A DNA stretch of 64,000 nucleotides from Diprion similis (Eukaryota > Arthropoda > Insecta > Hymenoptera > Diprionidae), in the NCBI RefSeq assembly GCF_021155765.1, contig NC_060106.1, forward strand, positions 22,660,031 to 22,724,030. Direction: 5' to 3'. Made by a program: the position numbers and the translations under genes. The notes beneath the pieces are model-generated. The model saw nothing but the letters and a program-made list of their open reading frames with translations. It was not told the origin of the DNA and ran no database searches. Each line of letters starts with the position of its first letter. Position 1 is the stretch's first letter. Positions 35,452-51,600 of the stretch are shown here, piece after piece.

Positions 35452-38400
35452 ATGTATAGCTTTGACGGAGACTATAGACGAAAACCCCAACAAAATCTAG
35501 CCGGCGCTAGCCGTAGGGATGAAAAAGCTGTGCTGCTGCAGCATGCTCAATTGGAACGTTCAAAACGAGAGCAACAGCGTCAGAGGCATGACGCCGCTGT
35601 GAAAATCCAGGCTCAGATTCGTCAATTTGTAACGAGACAGTTGAAGCGTAAGCACGAAAGGCACAACTTTGATATAGCGCAGAAGGCCTTGGGTAATAAT
35701 CCACCAAGCTTGGAAGAGATTTCCCCTTTGCTCAGACAATTGTTATTTTTCTACGACGAGGCTCTAGATGCATCCAGATTGATATGGATACTTAGACATA
35801 TCTTGAAAGATCATGAGCGCATAAAACAACTGACTACCACCTCCACAGAATGGTCGTGGAGACTACGGTATGTTTATGAAATAAAGTATACTGTTCCTCT
35901 GATTAATTTGAAAGCTAAAAACCAGTTGAGTAGGGCGTAACTGGCAAGCATTTCCATTTCGAAGCTGCTGGCGGGTCATTGTGTTTGCAAATTATTAAAA
36001 CAACACTATCCCCTTGGGGCTACAAGCAATTCCTCAATTTGTGCGCAACTATAAAGACCAATTTGCCAGAAGGGTGTGACATTACCTTAGCCATCTGAAC
36101 TTTTTATCAAATCAATGTTGCATCACAGTGATGTATTATTTAGCACATTGAGGTGGAAAAGAAGTGAAAAAAAAAACAAAGCATAGAATGGTCTCATTTT
36201 TGTAATTTTTCTAGTTCACCTTCTTTGACACTATTAAGTGAAACATGCATGTTATGTATGTTGTTTCCATAGCTTGATTTAATACTTCTGCTTTGCCCTC
36301 TCTGCTGTTAAATTAATATTTTTTTGAGTGCTTTTACCCTTTTAGTTTGTACAGCTTGAATTAATACCATCGGTTTCCTTACAACTTTTCAGGTGGATTC
36401 TCAAATTATCCATGCGAAAAATAGTTGACACGGTTTCCCAAGATCCTGCTCGTTCCATAGCCGTTCCTCTGCGAGTCCTGGAAGTGTTCACTATGAAAGA
36501 AAATACAGAAGGAATTTTAAAGAAAGAAACGGATCGCCATTTGATCGGTATATTTGTATATTTGGCAGAAAACAAGTACTTTGTACAATTGAGAAAGTTG
36601 ATAGATGAAAAAGTGCCTCCTTTGTTGGAAGCAACGCCTGTACCGGCGACACCTATGGCGGGATGTCTGTTGGATATGATTAAACGACCTCTTGGACTTA
36701 TCCATACCATGGAAGAGAATAATGATTCTTCTGTTACGATACTTGAAGAGTTCTGCTGCAGCATTCTTGCACCAAGAATGTCAGAGCCAATTAAGATGTT
36801 TGTCTTACCTGCACTGTCAAAATTTCAAAGTCTCCCATACAAACAATTAATCGATTGTATAAATAGACTTGCAAATGAGCCTACTCTGTGCCTTTTGTAT
36901 AGCATACTATCCCTGGAACCAGTCGGATTTGGTAATTATCATATTCAGATTAATAGTCATAATTACGAACACTAATGCAAATATACATTTGATACTTCAT
37001 ATGTTTCAAATGTTGTCCATACTTGGGTGTATATTGCATTACTAATGTTTTCATCTTTGCACCCACAGCCTGCAGAATGTCAAGGAACACTCTGACGAAC
37101 TACCTTCAAGTTTTGGCATCGCTGAGTTCGACGATAGCTTCCCCACCTGCAGAGCAGAGTTTAAATTTCACCGACGAATCGGACAGTGATACGGACACTG
37201 ATATGGTGGATCAGGATGAAGCGGACATACGTCAAAAATGCATTGAAATGTTGAATGCAGAAAATCGCGTACAAGGTATTCTTGTGGTGGTGGACCAAAG
37301 CGAGGATCCTCTAATGCTCCAAGCCCTATGTCAGTTGTGCCACAATCTTTTGATAACCAACAAAATGGCTGTTCCAAAATATAAACTACTCTACATGCTT
37401 GCATTCAAACCATCGTTCCTTCGCCATTTATGGACGGCACTAATGTCCGTTCGTCAAACATCCCTGTTTGGGGGTGTCACTCTTCTACTCCAAGTAGTTT
37501 CTCGAGGTATCGCCCTAGATGCGGATAACACAAAAAAGATTGTACCTCTTTTAGCAGTTTTTTGCTCACTCTTCAGTTTGCTTATTGCAACGCTGCACGA
37601 CACCGAATTCTTCAACGATGGCTCCCAAGTTGGAACAAGTGGTGCCAGCCAACAGACAATGCCATTCACGACTGTAGAACTAGTGCCACTTTCTGCTCAT
37701 TTGAAGGGAGTTTGCTTGGGCCTGGTTGAGCTCGCGTTCCCTGACACCCGGCCGACGGTACGAGACGATTATAAAACTGCAGTACTTGGCACGTCTGCTA
37801 CTCAAACTCACCAAAACACGCAAATGTGGGTGCACTTGTTCAAAGTAACCGTAGGTTTGCTTCGGCAACTGCACACTCGTGATTTGAGAAAACAATTCTG
37901 CCCTGAAGGCCATTGGATAGCTTCAAACATTGTGATACCACTGGACAAGCCACAGGATTTTACATTCCGACGTCGCAGATTAAGAGGCTATGTACCATTT
38001 CAAGGACTACGAGCATTTACCCGTGAAGATTTGGAGGAAGGCCCTCCTTGGTCGACAAAGGAAGTGCGAACGCTTACGCTACTTCGTGAGATACCCTTTG
38101 TTGTGCCATTCAGCGATCGTGTAGTGGTATTTCAATCTCTCTTGAATCACGACAAAGAGGAACAGCAAGGTGAATGGACGAATTTCATGCGGGGTCCATA
38201 CATACAGATTGCTGTGAGACGGAATTACTTGTACGAGGATGCGTTTGACAAACTTTCACCAGAGAACGAGTCCGAGTTGAGGCTGAAAATGAAGGTTCAA
38301 TTGGTGAACGCAGCTGGCCTTGAAGAGGCTGGTGTAGACGGGGGTGGACTATTCCGAGAATTTCTTTCAGAGTTGTTAAAAACGAGCTTTGATCCAAACC

Positions 38401-40730
38401 GCGGATTTTTCAGGCTGACCAAGGATAACATGTTGTATCCAAATCCAACGGTGCACCTTCTTGTTGATGATTTTCCAAAACACTACTACTTCATTGGTCG
38501 TATATTGGGAAAGGCACTGTACGAGAATTTGTTAGTTGAATTGCCGTTTGCCGAATTTTTTTTATCAAAAATTGTCGGCAGGCAAGCCGATGTCGACGTT
38601 CATCACTTGGCTTCCCTGGATCCGATAATGTACAGAAATCTCTTGTATCTGAAAAGTTACCAAGGCGATGTTACCGAACTGGGGCTAGACTTTACAGTTT
38701 TATCTGACGAACTTGGGGAGAGACGCGTTGACGAGCTCAAGCCTGGTGGCGCAAATGTCACAGTGACTTCGCACAATCGGATAGAATACATCCATTTAAT
38801 GGCTGACTACAAATTAAACAAACAGATACGAGCCCAGTGCTACGCTTTCAAGCAGGGCATAAGTAATGTCGTATCCCTCGACTGGCTTCAAATGTTCAAT
38901 AATAAAGAACTACAGGTTCTAATCTCTGGTGCACAGATACCTGTCGATGTACGTGACTTGAAACTACATACAAACTACACTGGAGGCTATACCCCCGATC
39001 ACCCTACAATAATTTCCTTCTGGAAAATTGTTGACGAATTCACCGATCAACAGAGAAGTCAACTGCTCAAATTTGTGACAAGTTGCAGTCGACCACCGCT
39101 GCTTGGATTCAAGGTATGGTGAAACAAGAAATAACCTAAACAATACCGATACTAAACAAAGCAATCGTAATAGCATAGCGTGCAGGACTGCTGAATGGGA
39201 GGGTCTGAGTTCAAATCCTTAGCTTATCGAGAAGAACCTTAGTGGCAATTCACAGTAATTGTCAGACGGTTTCCACCGTTCAGGCGCTGAATCAGTAAGC
39301 TGTAGTTTGAACTCGGTCCGGCTACACCCGGGTAAAGTTTCCTACAGTTTACCTTGTCTTCTGTGCGAACATCTTGAATCGGTTGCAGCCGCATAACGAT
39401 GGTCATCAACCAACCCCTCCCTTGCCCTGCACAGATCTAGCCTACTTCAGACATATCCTATGGAGTATGGTGGGTGTTATTAGTGATCAGGGGCTGAAAG
39501 TAAAAGTGAAGTACATAACAAATTTAGGGGCAGGGGAGTCAAATCAGTTTGTTACTATTTGCTACAGTATGATGAAAATAAATATAAATAAAAGTGAAAC
39601 TTTTCGGTGATTGCTACAAAATTTTTAAGTCGAATTTGGTTCCTTAGAGTCCGTCTAAAGCAAACGTGTTAACGTCCCGAGTTTAGTGTTATGCGGCGAT
39701 TCTTGGCACAAGACCAGTCAACTTAATATAGGAGTTTGCTTAAAGATGGCCCAAAAGTTTTAAGAATTGAAAAATTATCTACAATATAGGGGGTAGGGGA
39801 GAGTGTAATATTTTTTTAGGGTCTGTTACATGAGGGGGGTAGGGATAAAAACGTGATCCTAAGTGTATAGCATAATTAAATTACAGCCTCTTATGATTAT
39901 GATTAAAATCTACAATGTGTATAGAATTGTCTCCTGCTACCAAAATATCTTGTTTCTTCATATAACAATACTGGGCATTATTTGGCGAAGGTAAGCATGA
40001 TGGGAAAGAGCAGAAATGGTTTTGCCCCCCTAAAAATATGCCCTAATGATATGCATCCATGTGAAACTTATTATAATATCCATGTTTCCTGTCCATTGCA
40101 AACATAAATTCCAAACCCTAAATATCACTGTCAGCGTAAGTGAGGATGACACAAATCATATGCAATAATTTTTTGTCAATTCACAATGTTTCAAAGCCAT
40201 TTCGAATAGTTTCATGATCCAGCAATGAGCGTTGAAGGAAAACAAAAAGAAAAGAATTGGCAGTGCGTTGTCAAGATAGGAAAGTATAGGCATTTTCTTT
40301 TGAATTATTATATATTACAATAAAGTGCATCCCTTCTATGTGAACCGAATGTTATCAATTAACGGATGTAAATGAACTTTAAGAACAGTCTTGGAGTATG
40401 TATCAAAAAAAGGGTTCTTTCTGTACTTAATATTTTTCGATTATTTTACGTTTTTTTTAGATTAATTTTTGTTATTGTCAGTATTCGTAACTAACGACAA
40501 TCAGGACAGTCGACTTCGTAATCTTACATTCTAATTCAATTTTTTCTTCTCTTTATTTTCAGGAACTTGATCCACCTTTCTGCATTCAACACGCAGGTAG
40601 CGTCGATAGGCTGCCGACTTCGAGCACGTGCATGAACCTTTTAAAACTTCCAGAATTTCCCGACGAAAGAACGCTAAGGGAAAAGCTTCTGTACGCTATA
40701 CAAGCGGGTGCAGGATTTGAGCTTAGCTAA
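35452..40730 (+). CDS. Ube3c: HECT E3 ubiquitin-protein ligase UBE3C (HUL5 family)
   Basis: A proteasome-associated ubiquitin ligase that extends ubiquitin chains to aid processive degradation. Exons: 35452-35867, 36393-36931, 37069-39113, 40563-40730. They total 3168 nt (1055 aa plus stop; human about 1083), all in frame. The N-terminus MYSFDGDYRRKP followed by GASRRDEKA matches UBE3C, then an IQ-like motif (AVKIQAQIRQFVTRQ, about aa 49-63). An acidic linker DESDSDTDTD lies near aa 346. The HECT domain covers roughly aa 700-1055, with AGVDGGGLFREFLSEL and, in the last exon, the catalytic cysteine in TSSTCMNLLKLP at about residue 1023. The last exon (56 codons) is separated by a 1.45-kb intron carrying a candidate SINE. 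Start and stop are unambiguous. Confidence 0.97.
39171..39605 (+). mobile_element. Candidate tRNA-derived SINE in the UBE3C intron
   Basis: The sequence TAGCATAGCGTGCAGG resembles an RNA polymerase III A box. About 30 bases on, GAGTTCAAATCC fits a B box (GTTCRANNCC). A unique-looking body of about 350 bp follows, then an A/T-rich tail (AAATAAATATAAATAAAAG). It is in the same orientation as the host gene. The boundaries are approximate. Confidence 0.5.
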
Positions 40731-44579: not shown

Positions 44580-44940
44580 TTAATGAAGTTAAAGTTCGAA
44601 ACTTTAATATAACCATGTAATTTTAGGAATCGTCGGTCTTGGCAACTTCGGAATTGTTTGCAATACGGTAAAACGTAATGAAGCAGCACATAGTAGCATT
44701 TTATGCAAACTCGACTCCATCAAAGATATTCTAAAGTTGCAATTAAATACAGAATTATAAATTGGCTCGTAAATTTCTGTCAGGTGAAAATGTGTCGAAA
44801 AAATACACAAATAATCCTTGTATTTATACCGTGGATCGATTGATATTAATTTACGGATAATGTTGACGAATCACTTTGAATAAAACAATCATTCTAAGTT
44901 TATCAATAAATACACTGATGCATTTATCATCAAATTGTAA

Positions 44941-44991
44941 AGCCGGGTACAGACTTGAGCACGAACGCGAATGAGGCAGGCCGAGGCCGCA
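44941..44991 (+). repeat. Harbinger left terminal inverted repeat
   Basis: 51 bp, exact inverse of 48418-48468. After the final A (44991) the two ends diverge. Confidence 0.95.
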
Positions 44992-45093
44992 CCGAACGTT
45001 CTGCGCTAGAAAATAATAACTTTTCCCGAGGACGTACGCGGCAAACTGAGACCATTGTTCGGAAGTGCTCCAGTCTGTTCGGACCGTACCAAC

Positions 45094-47426
45094 ATGGCTG
45101 ACGCAAATGTCGCAGTTGCTTGTGCAAGTTTTATAACTATTTGTTTATTATTGAAAAAAAATAAAAAACTAAAAAAGAAAAGACGTTGGTGGTCACGCCA
45201 CCTGTATCGGAGGAGAACAGAAATTAATACCTCAATATTAAATGATCTTGTAACTGAAGATAGCGGTCATTTTCAAAATTTTACAAGAATGTCTCGCAAT
45301 GATTTCAATTTCATTCTCAATTCTATCAAAGACAAAATATCCAAAAAAGATACGGTTTTCCGAAAAGCAGTCTCCCCTGAAGAAAGATTGGCTGTAACTT
45401 TAAGATTTCTTGCAACAGGTGATTCCTTCACTAGTTTGCAATATCTATTCAAAATATCGAAACAATTGATATCGGAAATAATCCCAGACGTGTGCCGAGC
45501 AATAATCGATTGTCTTAAAGATCACGTAAAGGTAAGTAAAAATATAACCAATATTAATATAGTTGTCACAAACATTTTTATTAGTAGTAAATATATGAAG
45601 TACAAATATATGAATATTATAGTGATTGAAGTGACTCTGTAGTGATAATGAGTTATGGAGACTCATTATTAAACATCATTAGATGAATCGGAAAATTGGT
45701 GGAAATAATTGCATAAAGAGGGCGAATTGTTTTCTTGAGGAGAAGGATACGGCGAATTTATCTGACTTATTGGAGTGGAAGAGCGAGAACTGTCAGTGAC
45801 GAGTGTTTGTGGAGTAGGTGGACGTAATATCTGTTGTTGGAAATTAGACGAATGCGGGGGAGGTTGAGTACAACTTGGAGAAATTTGTGTTCGATGAAAT
45901 TGATCGTTGTAAGCAAATCGTGTTTCATTCTGGTTATACGGAGCGAGTGATTGATAAACATTTCTTTCGGAAGAATGAATGGGAAAAGAAGATTGTGTGA
46001 GTGGAGTTTCCGGATGCTGATATGCACTCATTTCTAATTCGAATAGAGCGTTGTTAATTCGATGTTGCGCGACGGCACGAGTACGAGCGTCAAATGTACG
46101 CAGTTTATCTGCAATGTACTCTCCAAAAAGACTACATTGGTCTTTTTTCTGCTTCGTGGCTGCTGTTGCTTCTTCGAGGTACCCAAATGCTTTTGCGATT
46201 CTCGGGTCCTCGTCATCCCGTTTTCGTTTTATTGTACGTTTTTTTGGTGACTTAAACTCTTTAGTATTTGCTTTATCCGATAGCTCTTTGCCTGGTATTT
46301 GTTCATCAATTACGTCCTTCGCGGTTTGTTTATTTCCAATTTCTTCTTTTTCTCCGAGAGTCTCGTCTTGTATTTCACTGCTGGAATCCTCTTCTTCTTC
46401 TTCGTCGGTTGGTGTTCGTACATTCTATGCAAATAATAAACGACTGTATAAGTAAATGCATATTGTTATAGTTTTTTTGGAATGATTGAACATTTGAGTA
46501 GACCAGACTAGATTAGAGTAGGACTAAATGTATTATAATTTCATTGTTTTTTTTTAAATTATTTTATTTGTTGTTATTTTATTACTACCGAGATATTTTT
46601 ATTGCAGATGCCGTCAACTTGTAATGAATGGAAAAGCATTGCTGATGCATTTAATGAGACATGGAATTTCCCAAATTGTATTGGAGCCGTTGACGGAAAG
46701 CACGTCATTTTACAAGCTCCAATAAATAGTGGAAGCGAATTCTTCAACTATAAATCCCAATTCAGCATTGTTTTAATGGCGGTAGCAGATGCTGATTACA
46801 ATTTTATATTCGTTAATATTGGCGCTCAAGGACGGATTTCAGACGGAGGTGTCTTCAAAAATTGTGAATTTTTTAAAGAACTCGAGAAAGAAAATTTGAA
46901 GTTACCCAAGCCTTCAGCTTTAATTGGGAGAAAAATGGAAGTTCCCTACGTCTTATTGGGAGATGCAGCCTTTCCTCTTAATGAGCATATAATGAAACCC
47001 TACTCAGGCATTCATCCAGTAGGATCTCCAAAACGAATCTTCAATTACCGTTTATCAAGGGCACGTCGCGTAGTAGAAAATGCCTTTGGCATTGCAGCTA
47101 GTGTGTTCAGAGTTTTGCGAAAACCAATGTTGTTACAACCAGAAAAAGCGGAACTGGTTGTAATGACAGTGGTAACTTTACATAATTTTTTACGCAGAAG
47201 TAACACTTCAAGAAATCTCTATACACCTACTGGATCTGTAGATTATGTTCAGAATGGAGAAATAATATCTGGATACTGGCGAAATGATCAGCAAGAAATG
47301 GCATCTCTTTTACCATTACAAAATATACCTCGAAGAACAAAACTAATCGCGCAAGAAATACGAGAAGAGTTCACGGAATATTTTTGTACTTGTGGTAGTG
47401 TACCGTGGCAAAATTATTACAATTGA
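45094..47426 (+). CDS. Harbinger DDE transposase (HARBI1-like nuclease)
   Basis: Catalyses excision and integration of the element. Exons 45094-45531 and 46608-47426 (1257 nt, 418 aa plus stop), joined in phase 0 between strong splice sites (AAG|GTAAGT and TTTATTGCAG|ATG). The N-terminal third is basic with a helical recognition region (FTRMSRNDFNFILNSI, RLAVTLRFLATGDSF). The DDE superfamily-4 core has Asp about 175 (GAVDGKH), Asp about 265 (LLGDAAFPL) and Glu about 303 (RRVVENAFG). There are no internal stops, so it may be functional. ATG 45094 (MADANVAV) is the first in-frame ATG. AATAAA lies at 47457-47462. The 1.08-kb intron contains the antisense last exon of the DNA-binding gene. Confidence 0.93.
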
Positions 47427-47902
47427 TAAGTGTTTGTAAGGTTCACAATAGTTTCAAATAAAAATACTTACACTTGAAGTCTTCCGAATCTCGTTCTTAT
47501 CATCCAAAAAGTTTAAATATTCGAACGCAAACCATTTAGATGTGTAAACCTCATTTCGTCCTGCAATTGTACGTATATTTTACAAATATATATTTTTTTC
47601 CTTTTTTTATTATTTTACAAATATATATTCATTGTTTTTGAATCTCTCATTCTTTATATCTTACCTTTTCCAGTTCCAACACTTTTTTTCATTCGCGTTT
47701 TCTCTCGTCTGTAGGAACCTTTCAGGCTCTCCATCTTTTTTTTTACGTCATCAATATCTTTTCCAATTTTTTCAGAAACTTCTCTCCAAGCATCTTCTTT
47801 TCGTATTTTATTATAATACGAAGCATTTCGAGGATTCCACAAAATTTCTCTGTTTCTGTACTCGCCAATCAGCTTTATGCAAGTTTCTTCATCCCATTCC
47901 AA
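45669..47902 (-). CDS. Harbinger accessory MADF/BESS DNA-binding protein
   Basis: The second Harbinger gene; such Myb/MADF partners bind the element ends and help import the transposase. Exons in transcript order: 47902-47665, 47560-47472, 46424-45669 (1083 nt, about 360 codons, all in frame). The MADF domain is at the N-terminus (WDEETCIKLIGEYRNREILW, then ...WREVSEKIGKD). An acidic and basic linker (SPKKRTIKRKRDDEDP) follows, then a BESS-like segment (CSLFGEYIADKLRTFDARTR) and a Pro/Ser-rich tail. There is an oddity at the start: the reading frame opens TTG GAA TGG where ATG GAA TGG would be expected, and an in-frame TAA lies seven codons before that TTG with no ATG between. So 47902 is only a nominal start. 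Either a non-ATG start is used, an upstream exon exists that I cannot place, or the start was lost. Confidence 0.85.
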
Positions 47903-48417
47903 TTCAAAGAAAAAAAGTTACTAAAAAAAAATAGACACGTTACATTGCGATACATGGTGTAGTAATTCCTTCATGTTAACTGCGACTTAATTATTATTCG
48001 ATTTTAAACATTACGAATCAAACAAAAAAAAGAGTAAATTAACTAAAAATTGATTAATTATTTAATTAATCAACAAGTAGTATTTGTATAAATAAGAATA
48101 ACGCAGCAAGTAAAAAAAATCAGATAAAAAATACAAATGGAATTTTAATTCAACCCGTATTATGAAATGAATGAATAGATACAATTTTGTATTATAAAGT
48201 GGAATAATTAGGAATTATAATTACCGCACATACCCTGGTTTTCCGATGCTCTGTTCGCGGTGAAACGTCAACTTGTTGATGCGCATACGAACACGTCCAG
48301 ACTGAGCACGAATTTCTTTTGATCGACCGACAACATTTGGCTCGGTCCGAGGCCGTGCGCCGAACGACTTGAGGCAGTTTGCCGCGCCTCGGATCGACGT
48401 CCACACTTGCATGCTCA

Positions 48418-48468
48418 TGCGGCCTCGGCCTGCCTCATTCGCGTTCGTGCTCAAGTCTGTACCCGGCT
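48418..48468 (-). repeat. Harbinger right terminal inverted repeat
   Basis: 51 bp, exact inverse of 44941-44991, followed by the TAA target duplication. Confidence 0.95.
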
Positions 48469-48671
48469 TAACAAAGAGTAGATAATTAGAGTAGATAAGT
48501 GTATTGCTCGTTATTTTGTTGGATGACCGAATCGTGAATTTAAAAAAAAAAAACAGGAGTAAATTGAACTGTGTTTTATTTCTAATCCTATTTCGTGGTT
48601 TTCAATGGTGGACTAGATTAATTGACATATTTATCGCTGGGACAAACTGGTTATATTAAACCTTAGAGGAA

Positions 48672-51600
48672 ATGGAATTTATTAAGGATAAACTGGTATC
48701 TTTGCCCGAGGAGGAACAAAGAATTGCTGACTTCGTACAGATATTCACAGTCTTCTTGGACAGTGAGAATAGAAACGAGTCTGTTTCCGTAAGTTCAGTG
48801 CACGTATATAAAAGTTCAATCAACTGGTTGAAATACGTGATGACTTTTTCGTTTTGCAGCACCGAATCTCACCCTCTTGTTACATAAAGCAAATGTTATT
48901 GACAACGGAGGAGCGTACCGAGAGTTTAATAAAACGAGAGCATAAAGCCAAATTGGATGCTGACCCGTCGAGTGTCCCCTTTCGTGTTATCCCTAGCATC
49001 GTTATATTCCAACAGTTTTCTCCTGGGAGTAATTATAGTGTAGCTTTAACCATCAAGAACATTACCTCGGTAAGCGCTTCAGTTTAGTCAAGTGTATTTA
49101 GCGGTTATCTACGGGAATGTTCTTTGCATGGTCTAGTAGCGAAGCGCAGATCACTGTACTTGGATGATCTTTCTGCTTACGAGATCGGCGAGACAAGTAT
49201 TGAACCGAATTTAGATGAATTGACTGAACGGGCACATAAGTCTCGGATAGCCTTGCGTTTCTGAGCAAAAAAAATTATAGTCACATGCTTTACCAAAGCA
49301 CCTTGAGTGAAATAGTTTAGAGGACAAATAGATTACAGCAAAAATGAGGCAATATACGAAAAACCGCAACTATGCAATCAGGTGGAACCGTAAAACACGA
49401 TAAATTTCTAGCAGTCTGAGGGTAAATTTTGCTTTTGTCAGCGTGTTGCTGTCTGCTTGCTGTCTTCTTACCGTCTTCTTACCGTCTATCAAGAATTTCA
49501 GACGGCACATGTCGACTTCTGTAGTTCTAGTCTTAATACATAATCTATGTCTACTGTGCGTGACCGTCTATAAACTACGCAACGCTATTTTTATCTAAAG
49601 ATGCTTATCGGCCCCGACTAGAGTAACAAATATGGCTGGATATGTATCCAGGTGAATTTGAATTGAAAATTAGCATCTTCTGTGAAATTCCAAAGAAATG
49701 GACAAACAGCGCTATGTAACGAAGGCTCTTACCCCCTTCCCCCTGTAAGAAATCGAGAGCCTCCGCGGCCCCCCTCCCTCGTCCTCCTATAAAAGTGCGC
49801 GACGTAGTTTGTGGATGGGTTTTGTGATATCACAGGTTTCGCAGTACTTGAAGATGGTTCGAATCGAGAATCCATGGTTCAGAATCGAGTCTAATGATAC
49901 GACGTACCGAAAAAAATTAGCACCAGGAATGAGTGTCGTTTACGATGTCAAATTTTGCCCAGAGGAAAGACGGGATTACAAGCACCAGGCAACTTTTTCT
50001 ATGGGTTCTGACGTGTTCGTGATACCCATTTTAGGTGAGAATTGATCGTAATTTTCCTGTAGTTGTGATCTCAACAATTGGATGTACTTGACCTTCTGGC
50101 AATTGGATGTTCTTCAGCGGAATAAAAGTACGCCGTCGATATACCTGTCTAACTACAGGTCTCACCTGTCGAGGAACTACATACGTTTAACGATAATTTA
50201 TGTTATTAAAATACCGCGCTATAGTTCGCACGCAGTAGTAGTGAATCGATTTCAGAAGTGCAGTCTGTAATAAATCACAAGCAAAATATACTTGTGTGTA
50301 CTCGATCATTCGAGTTTTTATCTTCAACTGTAACAAAAATACCAATTTAGGAAAAAATTTGCTTTGATTCAATGAAACATTTCCTGCCTGTTTCTTTGTC
50401 GCACCTACGAATTCTTACGTATTACGGTTTAATATTAATTGAGCGACCGTGTAGCATACTTATAATAACAATCTCCACGGAGCGCTCACGTTCCACGGGC
50501 TGGGGGTCCAGGGTATTCGGAATTCTCCTGATGGGAAACAATTATTACCACAGGTGTATTGTCGATATACGACAAGAATGAGGAAATATTTTAGTCCTCG
50601 GAATTGAATAATTCTCTAAAATTAAAGATACGTTTTTGGGGGTAAATGAGACAAAAAATACTAAAATCAATTAAATATTTCATCTAGTAAAATGAATCGG
50701 ATGTGTAAAATCGGAAACAAATCAACATCAATATACGATAAAAACATTATAAAATTGAAATTGAGGACCTGTAATACCATTCATACATTTACTAATGCAA
50801 CCTTATCAATTGGTACGATAAGAGAGTACATTGCGCCTGTCCGTGATTTCTTACGTTTGATCGGCTTTAGCAATTGGACCTCGACCATTGCTGGATTTTC
50901 CCGACACTATTGAGCTACCCAAAACGCCGGTGAAAGCCTTATCTTCGAAATGTTTACTTGTACGTAATATCAGCGATGTGTCTGCCGCCTTTTCTTTAAC
51001 CACAAACAGGTACGTTATGGTGTACGTACGCGTACGCCTGCGGGGTACGATGTTGAAATGCATAGAAATAGTGTCCGGGGTACTGATACCCCGGGTTGGT
51101 ATCACAGTATGAACTATATAGCGACCACTAAAAAGAGGCGCTATTGTTTTTTACAGATTGCAATACCTACCTAAATCAGTACTCTAGACACTACTCCCGT
51201 TTTAGAATCAACCTTTGCAGGTGTTCATTATATACACAAGATGATTGTACATAGTATCAACTGTATTACCGCTCTCCTCTTCTCTTTTTTCCCTCCTCCT
51301 TCCTGTTCCCCTCTTCTTTCTTCTCATTACTTTTACCTTTTCTGTTCCCTAATGGATTTTTGGGCACAGAGTCTATTGATGGCGGTGAATTTAGAGTGGC
51401 TCGGGAGATAGCCAAATTTTATTTTTGCTTCAATTTTCAAATTTGGAAATGATATTTACAGCCCGTTCACGGTTTACCCGAGAAAAGGAAATATCGCCGA
51501 AGGAGCAGCTATGCAAGTGACTGTTAATTTCTTATACGAGAAAAGTGGATGTTTCAGAGATAGCCTACTTGTTACGTATGACACAGGTATTGGATACTGC

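What the first reader, a model, noticed from the sequence alone, without database searches (positions are those of the whole stretch)
44941..48468. Structurally complete, apparently young Harbinger transposon with both genes
Seen: 51-bp identical terminal repeats, TAA duplications, an uninterrupted 418-aa transposase with D, D and E in the expected contexts, and an uninterrupted 3-exon MADF/BESS gene. Known: Harbinger needs both proteins and duplicates TWA. Inferred: recent and possibly mobile. It sits only 200 bp from the hydin start, so it could affect that promoter.
Basis: partly seen in the sequence, partly recalled or inferred. Interest (0 to 1): 0.7.

Follow-up and report, generated by a model that had tools for sequence, protein, structure and literature searches.

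The report
Young jumping gene with interlocked genes
This is a recently moved insect-type jumping gene (Harbinger) whose two protein genes are threaded through each other's introns on opposite DNA strands; this copy has lost the start signal of one of the two proteins, although near-identical sister copies keep it.

Summary
The element is real: 3,528 bp, perfect 51-bp inverted ends, TAA duplication, a DDE_Tnp_4 transposase and a MADF gene. The assembly search found three full copies (3-5 substitutions pairwise) and one 352-bp deletion derivative, in different flanks. One sister insertion has its empty site preserved twice, with one GAA where the filled site has two. Recent transposition is well supported.

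Two corrections. First, the window copy is probably not intact: MADF codon 1 is TTG here, ATG in both sister copies and in a diverged relative; in-frame stops lie upstream and the next ATG is codon 57, inside the DNA-binding domain. Pfam finds no BESS. One decayed relative shares this layout; another probably does, with weak MADF evidence. A fourth element is interlocked at other introns; four others are side by side. One or two origins is unresolved; function is unknown.

The parts
44938..44940 (.). target-site duplication TAA, left copy
44941..44991 (+). left terminal inverted repeat, 51 bp perfect
45094..45531 (+). transposase exon 1 (codons 1-146), donor AAG|GTAAGT
   Evidence: homology to relatives
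45532..46607 (+). transposase intron, 1,076 nt; contains MADF exon 3 on the other strand
   Evidence: same intron position in C4rel
45669..46424 (-). MADF gene exon 3 (acidic linker, basic stretch, conserved C-terminal motif); stop at 45669-45671
   Evidence: 40% aa identity over 131 codons to the C1 relative with changes concentrated at third positions
46608..47426 (+). transposase exon 2 (catalytic DDE domain), inside MADF intron 2; DDE_Tnp_4 match at protein residues 174-339
46425..47471 (-). MADF intron 2, 1,047 nt; contains transposase exon 2 on the other strand
   Evidence: splice sites matched in L013
47472..47560 (-). MADF exon 2 (end of MADF domain)
   Evidence: L013 has the matching exon and splice sites
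47665..47902 (-). MADF exon 1 (most of the MADF DNA-binding domain)
47900..47902 (-). MADF start codon position: TTG in this copy, ATG in the C4 and C10 copies and in the C1 relative
48418..48468 (-). right terminal inverted repeat, 51 bp perfect
48304..48311 (+). extra copy of the end motif GAGCACGA (others at 44957 and 48445, in the inverted ends; 0 in the element's middle); candidate MADF/transposase site, inferred
48469..48471 (.). target-site duplication TAA, right copy
48672..48674 (+). ATG of the likely first hydin exon, 203 bases beyond the element
   Evidence: hydin identity of exons downstream; the start itself is not verified

Best explanation
A young two-gene PIF/Harbinger DNA transposon family, three full copies and one internal-deletion derivative found in this genome, that moves by cut-and-paste with 3-bp target duplication. 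A DDE transposase cuts and joins; a MADF-domain protein is expected to bind the ends and bring the transposase to the nucleus (established for Harbinger3_DR by others, inferred here). The two genes are convergent and interlocked: each gene's last exon lies in an intron of the other, on the opposite strand. The window copy has lost the MADF start codon, so it most likely makes transposase but no full MADF protein, and could move only with MADF protein from a sister copy. Shown: copies, ends, duplications, one empty site, reading frames, start-codon difference, interlocked order of predicted exons here and in relatives. Inferred: splicing, expression, activity today, trans-mobilisation.
For: Copies. 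Empty site: (1 and 2 mismatches in 600 bp, single GAA versus GAA on both sides). Deletion derivative with 8-bp microhomology TCTGTTCG and identical ends. Domains. Start codon; ATG at the same residue in the C1 relative; in-frame stops upstream and next in-frame ATG at codon 57. Interlocking elsewhere: C1 relative (MADF exons 1, 2 and 3 in order, E 2e-28 to 5e-24; transposase exon-2 remnants on the other strand between exons 2 and 3, weak: E 8e-4 and 0.007, DNA 78% over 46 bp E 4e-5; splice sites). C4 relative: transposase intron at the same codon, E 1e-57 for the exon that begins there; MADF exons around it weak (see against). C14. Third-position excess of changes in both genes.
Against: No RNA or protein data, so splicing and translation are predictions. 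A TTG or other near-cognate start could give some MADF protein. Only four insertions were found, so transposition need not be ongoing. One of four duplications is GAA rather than TWA. MADF exon 3 has no Pfam match. In the C4 relative the MADF side is weak: local E 0.004 (exon 2), 0.008 and 0.033 (exon 3, one stop inside, 24% identity); 0 of 1000 shuffles of exon 2 but 4 of 1000 of exon 3 reach the observed score; Pfam MADF on its exon 2 only E 0.14, below cut-off; MADF exon 1 was not found there, and genome-wide MADF searches did not list it. An assembly error at 47902 cannot be excluded without reads.
Confidence: 0.85

Rival explanations
1. The window copy is a fully autonomous, intact Harbinger: the MADF protein starts at TTG or another non-AUG codon, or from an unseen upstream exon.
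For: The frame is open for 360 codons. Non-AUG initiation exists in eukaryotes (recalled). A 5' exon cannot be excluded from sequence alone.
Against: In the frame of MADF the upstream sequence has stops, one of them within seven codons of codon 1. Both sister copies and the diverged C1 relative have ATG at exactly this residue.
Confidence: 0.1
2. The interlocked layout is one ancient event inherited by all interlocked elements, with intron positions shifted later, rather than two events.
For: A clade of focal, C4rel, C14 and C4b is not rejected (p-AU 0.287). The two interlocked types have the same overall order of last exons.
Against: Intron positions differ (transposase codon 146 versus about 104). 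C10 and C1c carry a short intron at about codon 104 with no room for a MADF exon (GT-AG edges). A clade of only the three rows read as interlocked is rejected (p-AU 0.0003), but that leaves out C4b, whose state is unknown, and takes C4rel as interlocked.
Confidence: 0.45
3. The interlocking is a neutral by-product of compaction or rearrangement and has no function.
For: Overlapping genes are common in animals (about 10% of the human-mouse gene set in the abstract start of PMC2335118, seen in a listing only); no functional data here. Side-by-side relatives also survive in this genome.
Against: It is kept in a relative whose MADF is about 52% identical, probably in one whose transposase is 46-51% identical, and it occurs in C14, which is not compact (about 9.4 kb between its ends).
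Confidence: 0.7
4. The three copies are segmental duplications or assembly duplicates, not transpositions.
For: They are 99.9% identical.
Against: Flanks differ at all four sites, each with its own 3-bp duplication, and an empty site exists twice for one of them.
Confidence: 0.01

Closest known systems
PIF/Harbinger elements of insects with transposase and MADF genes (PMC9710019: abstract, sections 3 and 10, and passages read)
   Same: DDE transposase of about 400-500 aa plus a second 300-400 aa MADF/Myb-like gene; inverted ends; 3-bp duplications.
   Different: That paper describes domesticated insect pairs as next to each other, not always in the same direction, one pair annotated as dicistronic; its main text has no occurrence of 'nested', 'overlap' or 'opposite'. 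Here each gene's last exon lies in the other's intron.
Harbinger3_DR (zebrafish) and Ping/mPing (rice) (PMC2836001: passages read)
   Same: Two separate proteins required; 3-bp duplication; short non-autonomous derivatives moved in trans.
   Different: Gene layout not compared here. Activity of the present family is not tested; one of four duplications is GAA.
C14:4047131-4056543 element in the same genome
   Same: Transposase and MADF genes convergent and interlocked, inverted ends (37 bp, 92%).
   Different: Transposase intron at about codon 104 and MADF intron at domain position 40; MADF exons 2 and 3 lie in the transposase intron. Transposase 42% identical.
Side-by-side Harbingers in the same genome (C10:877-881k, C11:13903-13911k, C1:16444-16451k, C2:549-558k)
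   Same: Related transposase and MADF genes, convergent.
   Different: Genes do not interpenetrate; their last MADF exon was assigned by eye.

Membership tests
PIF/Harbinger superfamily | Transposase with the DDE_Tnp_4 domain and D, D, E | tested here: met
   PF13359 E 1.1e-28, full profile 1-158; D175, D265, E303
PIF/Harbinger superfamily | Second gene with MADF/Myb-like DNA-binding domain | tested here: met
   PF10545 E 1.8e-21, full profile 1-84. Met by the family; the window copy's gene lacks its ATG
PIF/Harbinger superfamily | Terminal inverted repeats | tested here: met
   51 bp perfect
PIF/Harbinger superfamily | 3-bp target-site duplication | tested here: met
   4 of 4 insertions; empty site with one GAA
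PIF/Harbinger superfamily | Duplication of the TWA type | tested here: inconclusive
   3 of 4 (TAA, TAA, TTA); the C10 insertion has GAA
PIF/Harbinger superfamily | Transposition needs both proteins | not testable with these tools
   Reported for Ping and Harbinger3_DR (PMC2836001, passages)
MADF/BESS protein | MADF domain | tested here: met
MADF/BESS protein | BESS motif | tested here: not met
   No Pfam BESS match at E<=1 on the whole protein or at E<=10 on C-terminal pieces of focal, C1, C14, C11 and C10 proteins, 5 of 5 without it. Since none of the five scored, a diverged BESS relative is not excluded
Autonomous element | Both genes with start codon, open frame and splice sites in this copy | tested here: not met
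   MADF codon 1 is TTG; the C4 and C10 copies do have ATG
MITE-type derivative (C6 copy) | Short, both ends kept, derived by internal deletion | tested here: met
   352 bp, 3,176 bp deleted at 8-bp microhomology

The most novel reading that the evidence does not exclude
Interlocking of the two Harbinger genes is a selected device, reached more than once. It locks transposase and MADF together so that an internal deletion that removes one gene cuts into the other, and it makes each primary transcript antisense to the other's last exon, which would hold both proteins at low, matched levels.
Probability: 0.13. Interest if true: 0.65.

Novelty: new variant of a known kind. Interest (0 to 1): 0.45.

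Why it matters
A young family with a small set of comparable copies, a preserved empty site and a copy in which one partner gene has just lost its start codon is a natural test of the two-protein requirement of Harbingers. The interlocked layout, shared with at least one diverged relative, raises a testable question about how a two-gene transposon keeps its genes together and matched. In my ten searches of the held paper library I found no description of it; the library lacks most subscription journals, and Repbase was not searched, so this is weak evidence of novelty.

Tried and rejected
Relatives outside this genome: viral contigs (2 pattern matches, none confirmed) and bacterial/archaeal genome contigs (28 pattern matches, none confirmed). 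So horizontal transfer could not be examined. Solved-structure searches with both proteins gave no convincing relative (best E 0.11 and 0.2). Empty-site search for the C6 insertion gave only its own flanks and partial repeats; for the focal and C4 insertions it was not run. I expected two independent origins of interlocking from a quick tree (FastTree); the careful tree and AU test do not reject a single origin if C4b is included, so I withdrew that claim. C4b (C4:8241873-8242716) was checked for MADF exons in the adjoining 5 kb and none was recognised (one 27% match, E 0.013, taken as chance); its state is undetermined, as are C9 and C1c. No structure prediction was run. Age: mean pairwise difference 0.113%, half 0.057%; with assumed insect rates of 2-5e-9 per site per generation (recalled) about 1.1-2.8e5 generations, an upper bound on insertion ages since differences may predate insertion.

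Full report
What is there. The window lies at C2:22660031-22724030 of a 269-Mb, 60-contig genome. At 44941-48468 there is a 3,528-bp element with 51-bp perfect inverted ends and a TAA on each side. The ends are G+C-rich (0.52 over the left 200 bp, 0.53 over the right 280) against 0.34 in the middle.

Copies. A DNA search of the whole assembly finds two more full-length copies, at C4:25875270-25878797 and C10:1664726-1668253, and a 352-bp derivative at C6:4257245-4257596; the tool calls its counts lower bounds. A scan for 28 bases of the end (from its second base), up to 3 mismatches, finds 8 sites, that is 4 elements with two ends each, and 0 for the reversed control. Pairwise substitutions among the full copies are 4 (window-C4), 5 (window-C10) and 3 (C4-C10). 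Duplications are TAA, TAA, GAA and TTA (window, C4, C10, C6). The C6 derivative lacks 3,176 bp, with 8-bp microhomology at the join. An end-like relic lies at C11:13815439-13815480 (93% over 42 bp); no transposase or MADF match was found in the 6 kb around it.

Empty site. The C10 insertion lies inside another repeat. Its two flanks joined with one GAA match C12:1881887-1882486 and C11:14107343-14107942 end to end, with 1 and 2 mismatches in 600 bp; both show one GAA where the filled site has GAA on both sides. This is direct evidence of insertion with a 3-bp duplication, and of its youth.

Genes. The transposase is exon 1 45094-45531, intron 1,076 nt, exon 2 46608-47426, 418 aa, identical in window and C4 copies and with one T-to-I change in C10. 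Pfam DDE_Tnp_4 covers 174-339. The MADF gene, on the other strand, is 47902-47665, 47560-47472 and 46424-45669, 360 codons; MADF covers residues 11-98. BESS was not found.

The start codon. Of the six variable sites among the three copies, one is 47902: MADF codon 1 is TTG in the window copy, ATG in C4 and C10. The diverged relative at C1:11656859-11658130 has ATG at the aligned residue, so TTG is the derived state. The frame upstream holds stops, and the next ATG is codon 57, inside the MADF domain. The window copy is therefore probably MADF-defective, though its ends are intact. The other differences are one silent transposase change (45354), MADF changes K-to-E in C4 (46145) and I-to-V in C10 (47489), the C10 transposase change (47167), and 48199 outside the coding exons.

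Interlocking. MADF exon 3 lies wholly in the transposase intron and transposase exon 2 wholly in MADF intron 2, on opposite strands, without coding overlap. Relatives in the same genome were read at 10 loci, chosen from the 44 transposase match rows and the MADF matches (13 rows, 38); the rest were not read. With the focal family that makes 11. Interlocked, 4 of 11, with different strength: (1) focal. (2) C1:11656859-11658130: MADF exons 1, 2 and 3 in order with matching splice sites, and between exons 2 and 3, on the other strand, decayed transposase pieces (residues 187-211, E 8e-4, one stop; 387-415, E 0.007; DNA 78% over 46 bp, E 4e-5). (3) C14:4047131-4056543. (4) C4:8236304-8240097, probable: transposase exon 2 begins at codon 146, the focal intron position (acceptor CAG and a donor-like GTAAAT), but the MADF exons on either side are weak (E 0.004, 0.008, 0.033; shuffles 0 of 1000 for exon 2 and 4 of 1000 for exon 3; Pfam MADF E 0.14 for exon 2 and nothing for exon 3), and its MADF exon 1 was not found. 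Side by side and convergent, 4 of 11: C10:877-881k, C11:13903-13911k, C1:16444-16451k and C2:549-558k; their last MADF exons were assigned by eye, which matters only for C11, the one of the four with a long transposase intron. Undetermined, 3 of 11: C9:6354-6355k (intronless transposase, no MADF seen in 5 kb), C1:16461k, and C4:8242k. In C14 the two MADF pieces are complementary halves of the domain (profile 1-40 at 39.7 bits and 41-84 at 32.6 bits), on one strand, on either side of the transposase exon; joined they cover the full profile at 77.6 bits. That they are one spliced gene is the natural reading. Both exons of the focal element evolve as coding sequence: mismatches at codon positions 1, 2, 3 are 0.40, 0.33, 0.59 for MADF exon 3 (focal-C1, 131 codons) and 0.37, 0.26, 0.59 for transposase exon 2 (focal-C4 relative, 172 codons).

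Origin of interlocking. A short intron at about codon 104, with GT-AG edges and no room for a MADF exon, is present in C10 and C1c, and the focal intron at 146 is shared only with the C4 relative among the loci read. This suggested two events. But the careful tree is poorly resolved (1 of 6 inner branches starred), and holding focal, C4rel, C14 and C4b together is not rejected (p-AU 0.287); only the set without C4b is (p-AU 0.0003), and C4b's state is unknown. One or two origins therefore remains open. The four side-by-side relatives are all convergent, so the simplest picture is two tail-to-tail genes whose last exons have changed places (inference).

Mechanism. For Ping and Harbinger3_DR both proteins are required, and for Harbinger3_DR the Myb-like protein binds the ends and is needed for nuclear entry of the transposase (PMC2836001 passages; PMC9710019 section 3). 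I infer the same here. The motif GAGCACGA occurs in both ends and once more at 48304, and 0 times in the element's middle, a candidate binding site, untested.

Neighbour. Conceptual exons downstream match HYDIN residues 137-282 (E 1.6e-24; one search gave the same match with one mistyped letter); a likely first exon begins at 48672, 203 bases beyond the element. An effect on its expression is possible but untested.

Literature. PMC9710019: abstract, sections 3 and 10, passages. PMC2836001, PMC2528002, PMC2891614 and PMC4528330: passages only. All others: search listings only. None of what I saw describes interlocked Harbinger genes (searches). I did not see the primary papers on animal Harbingers (Casola 2007, Kapitonov and Jurka 2004, named in a reference list) and did not try to fetch them.

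Verdict. An ordinary superfamily with a well-documented recent burst of low copy number; the window copy is probably not autonomous; the interlocked gene pair is the unusual part.

Noticed in passing
G000:C10:1664423-1668553; C12:1881887-1882486; C11:14107343-14107942: The C10 copy sits inside another repeat with a long open frame on one strand; two uninterrupted copies of that repeat differ from the C10 flanks by 1 and 2 of 600 bases, so that repeat is itself young.
   Followed up: partly
L012 (C11:13815439-13818208): A 42-bp stretch 93% identical to the element's end lies just outside a 58-bp inverted repeat (93%) about 2.6 kb apart, perhaps a relative with renewed ends.
   Followed up: no
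L028+L014+L030 (C14:4047131-4056543): A larger interlocked Harbinger, about 9.4 kb, carrying long inverted arms (up to 230 nt) downstream of its transposase exon 2; its transposase frame seems to break near the 3' end.
   Followed up: partly
whole genome G000: At least 93 DDE_Tnp_4 and 38 MADF matches (lower bounds; some MADF matches are probably host genes), so many other Harbinger lineages coexist with this young one.
   Followed up: no
window 37023-39122: A 699-codon open frame that looks like the HECT end of a ubiquitin ligase (recognised from memory, not searched).
   Followed up: no
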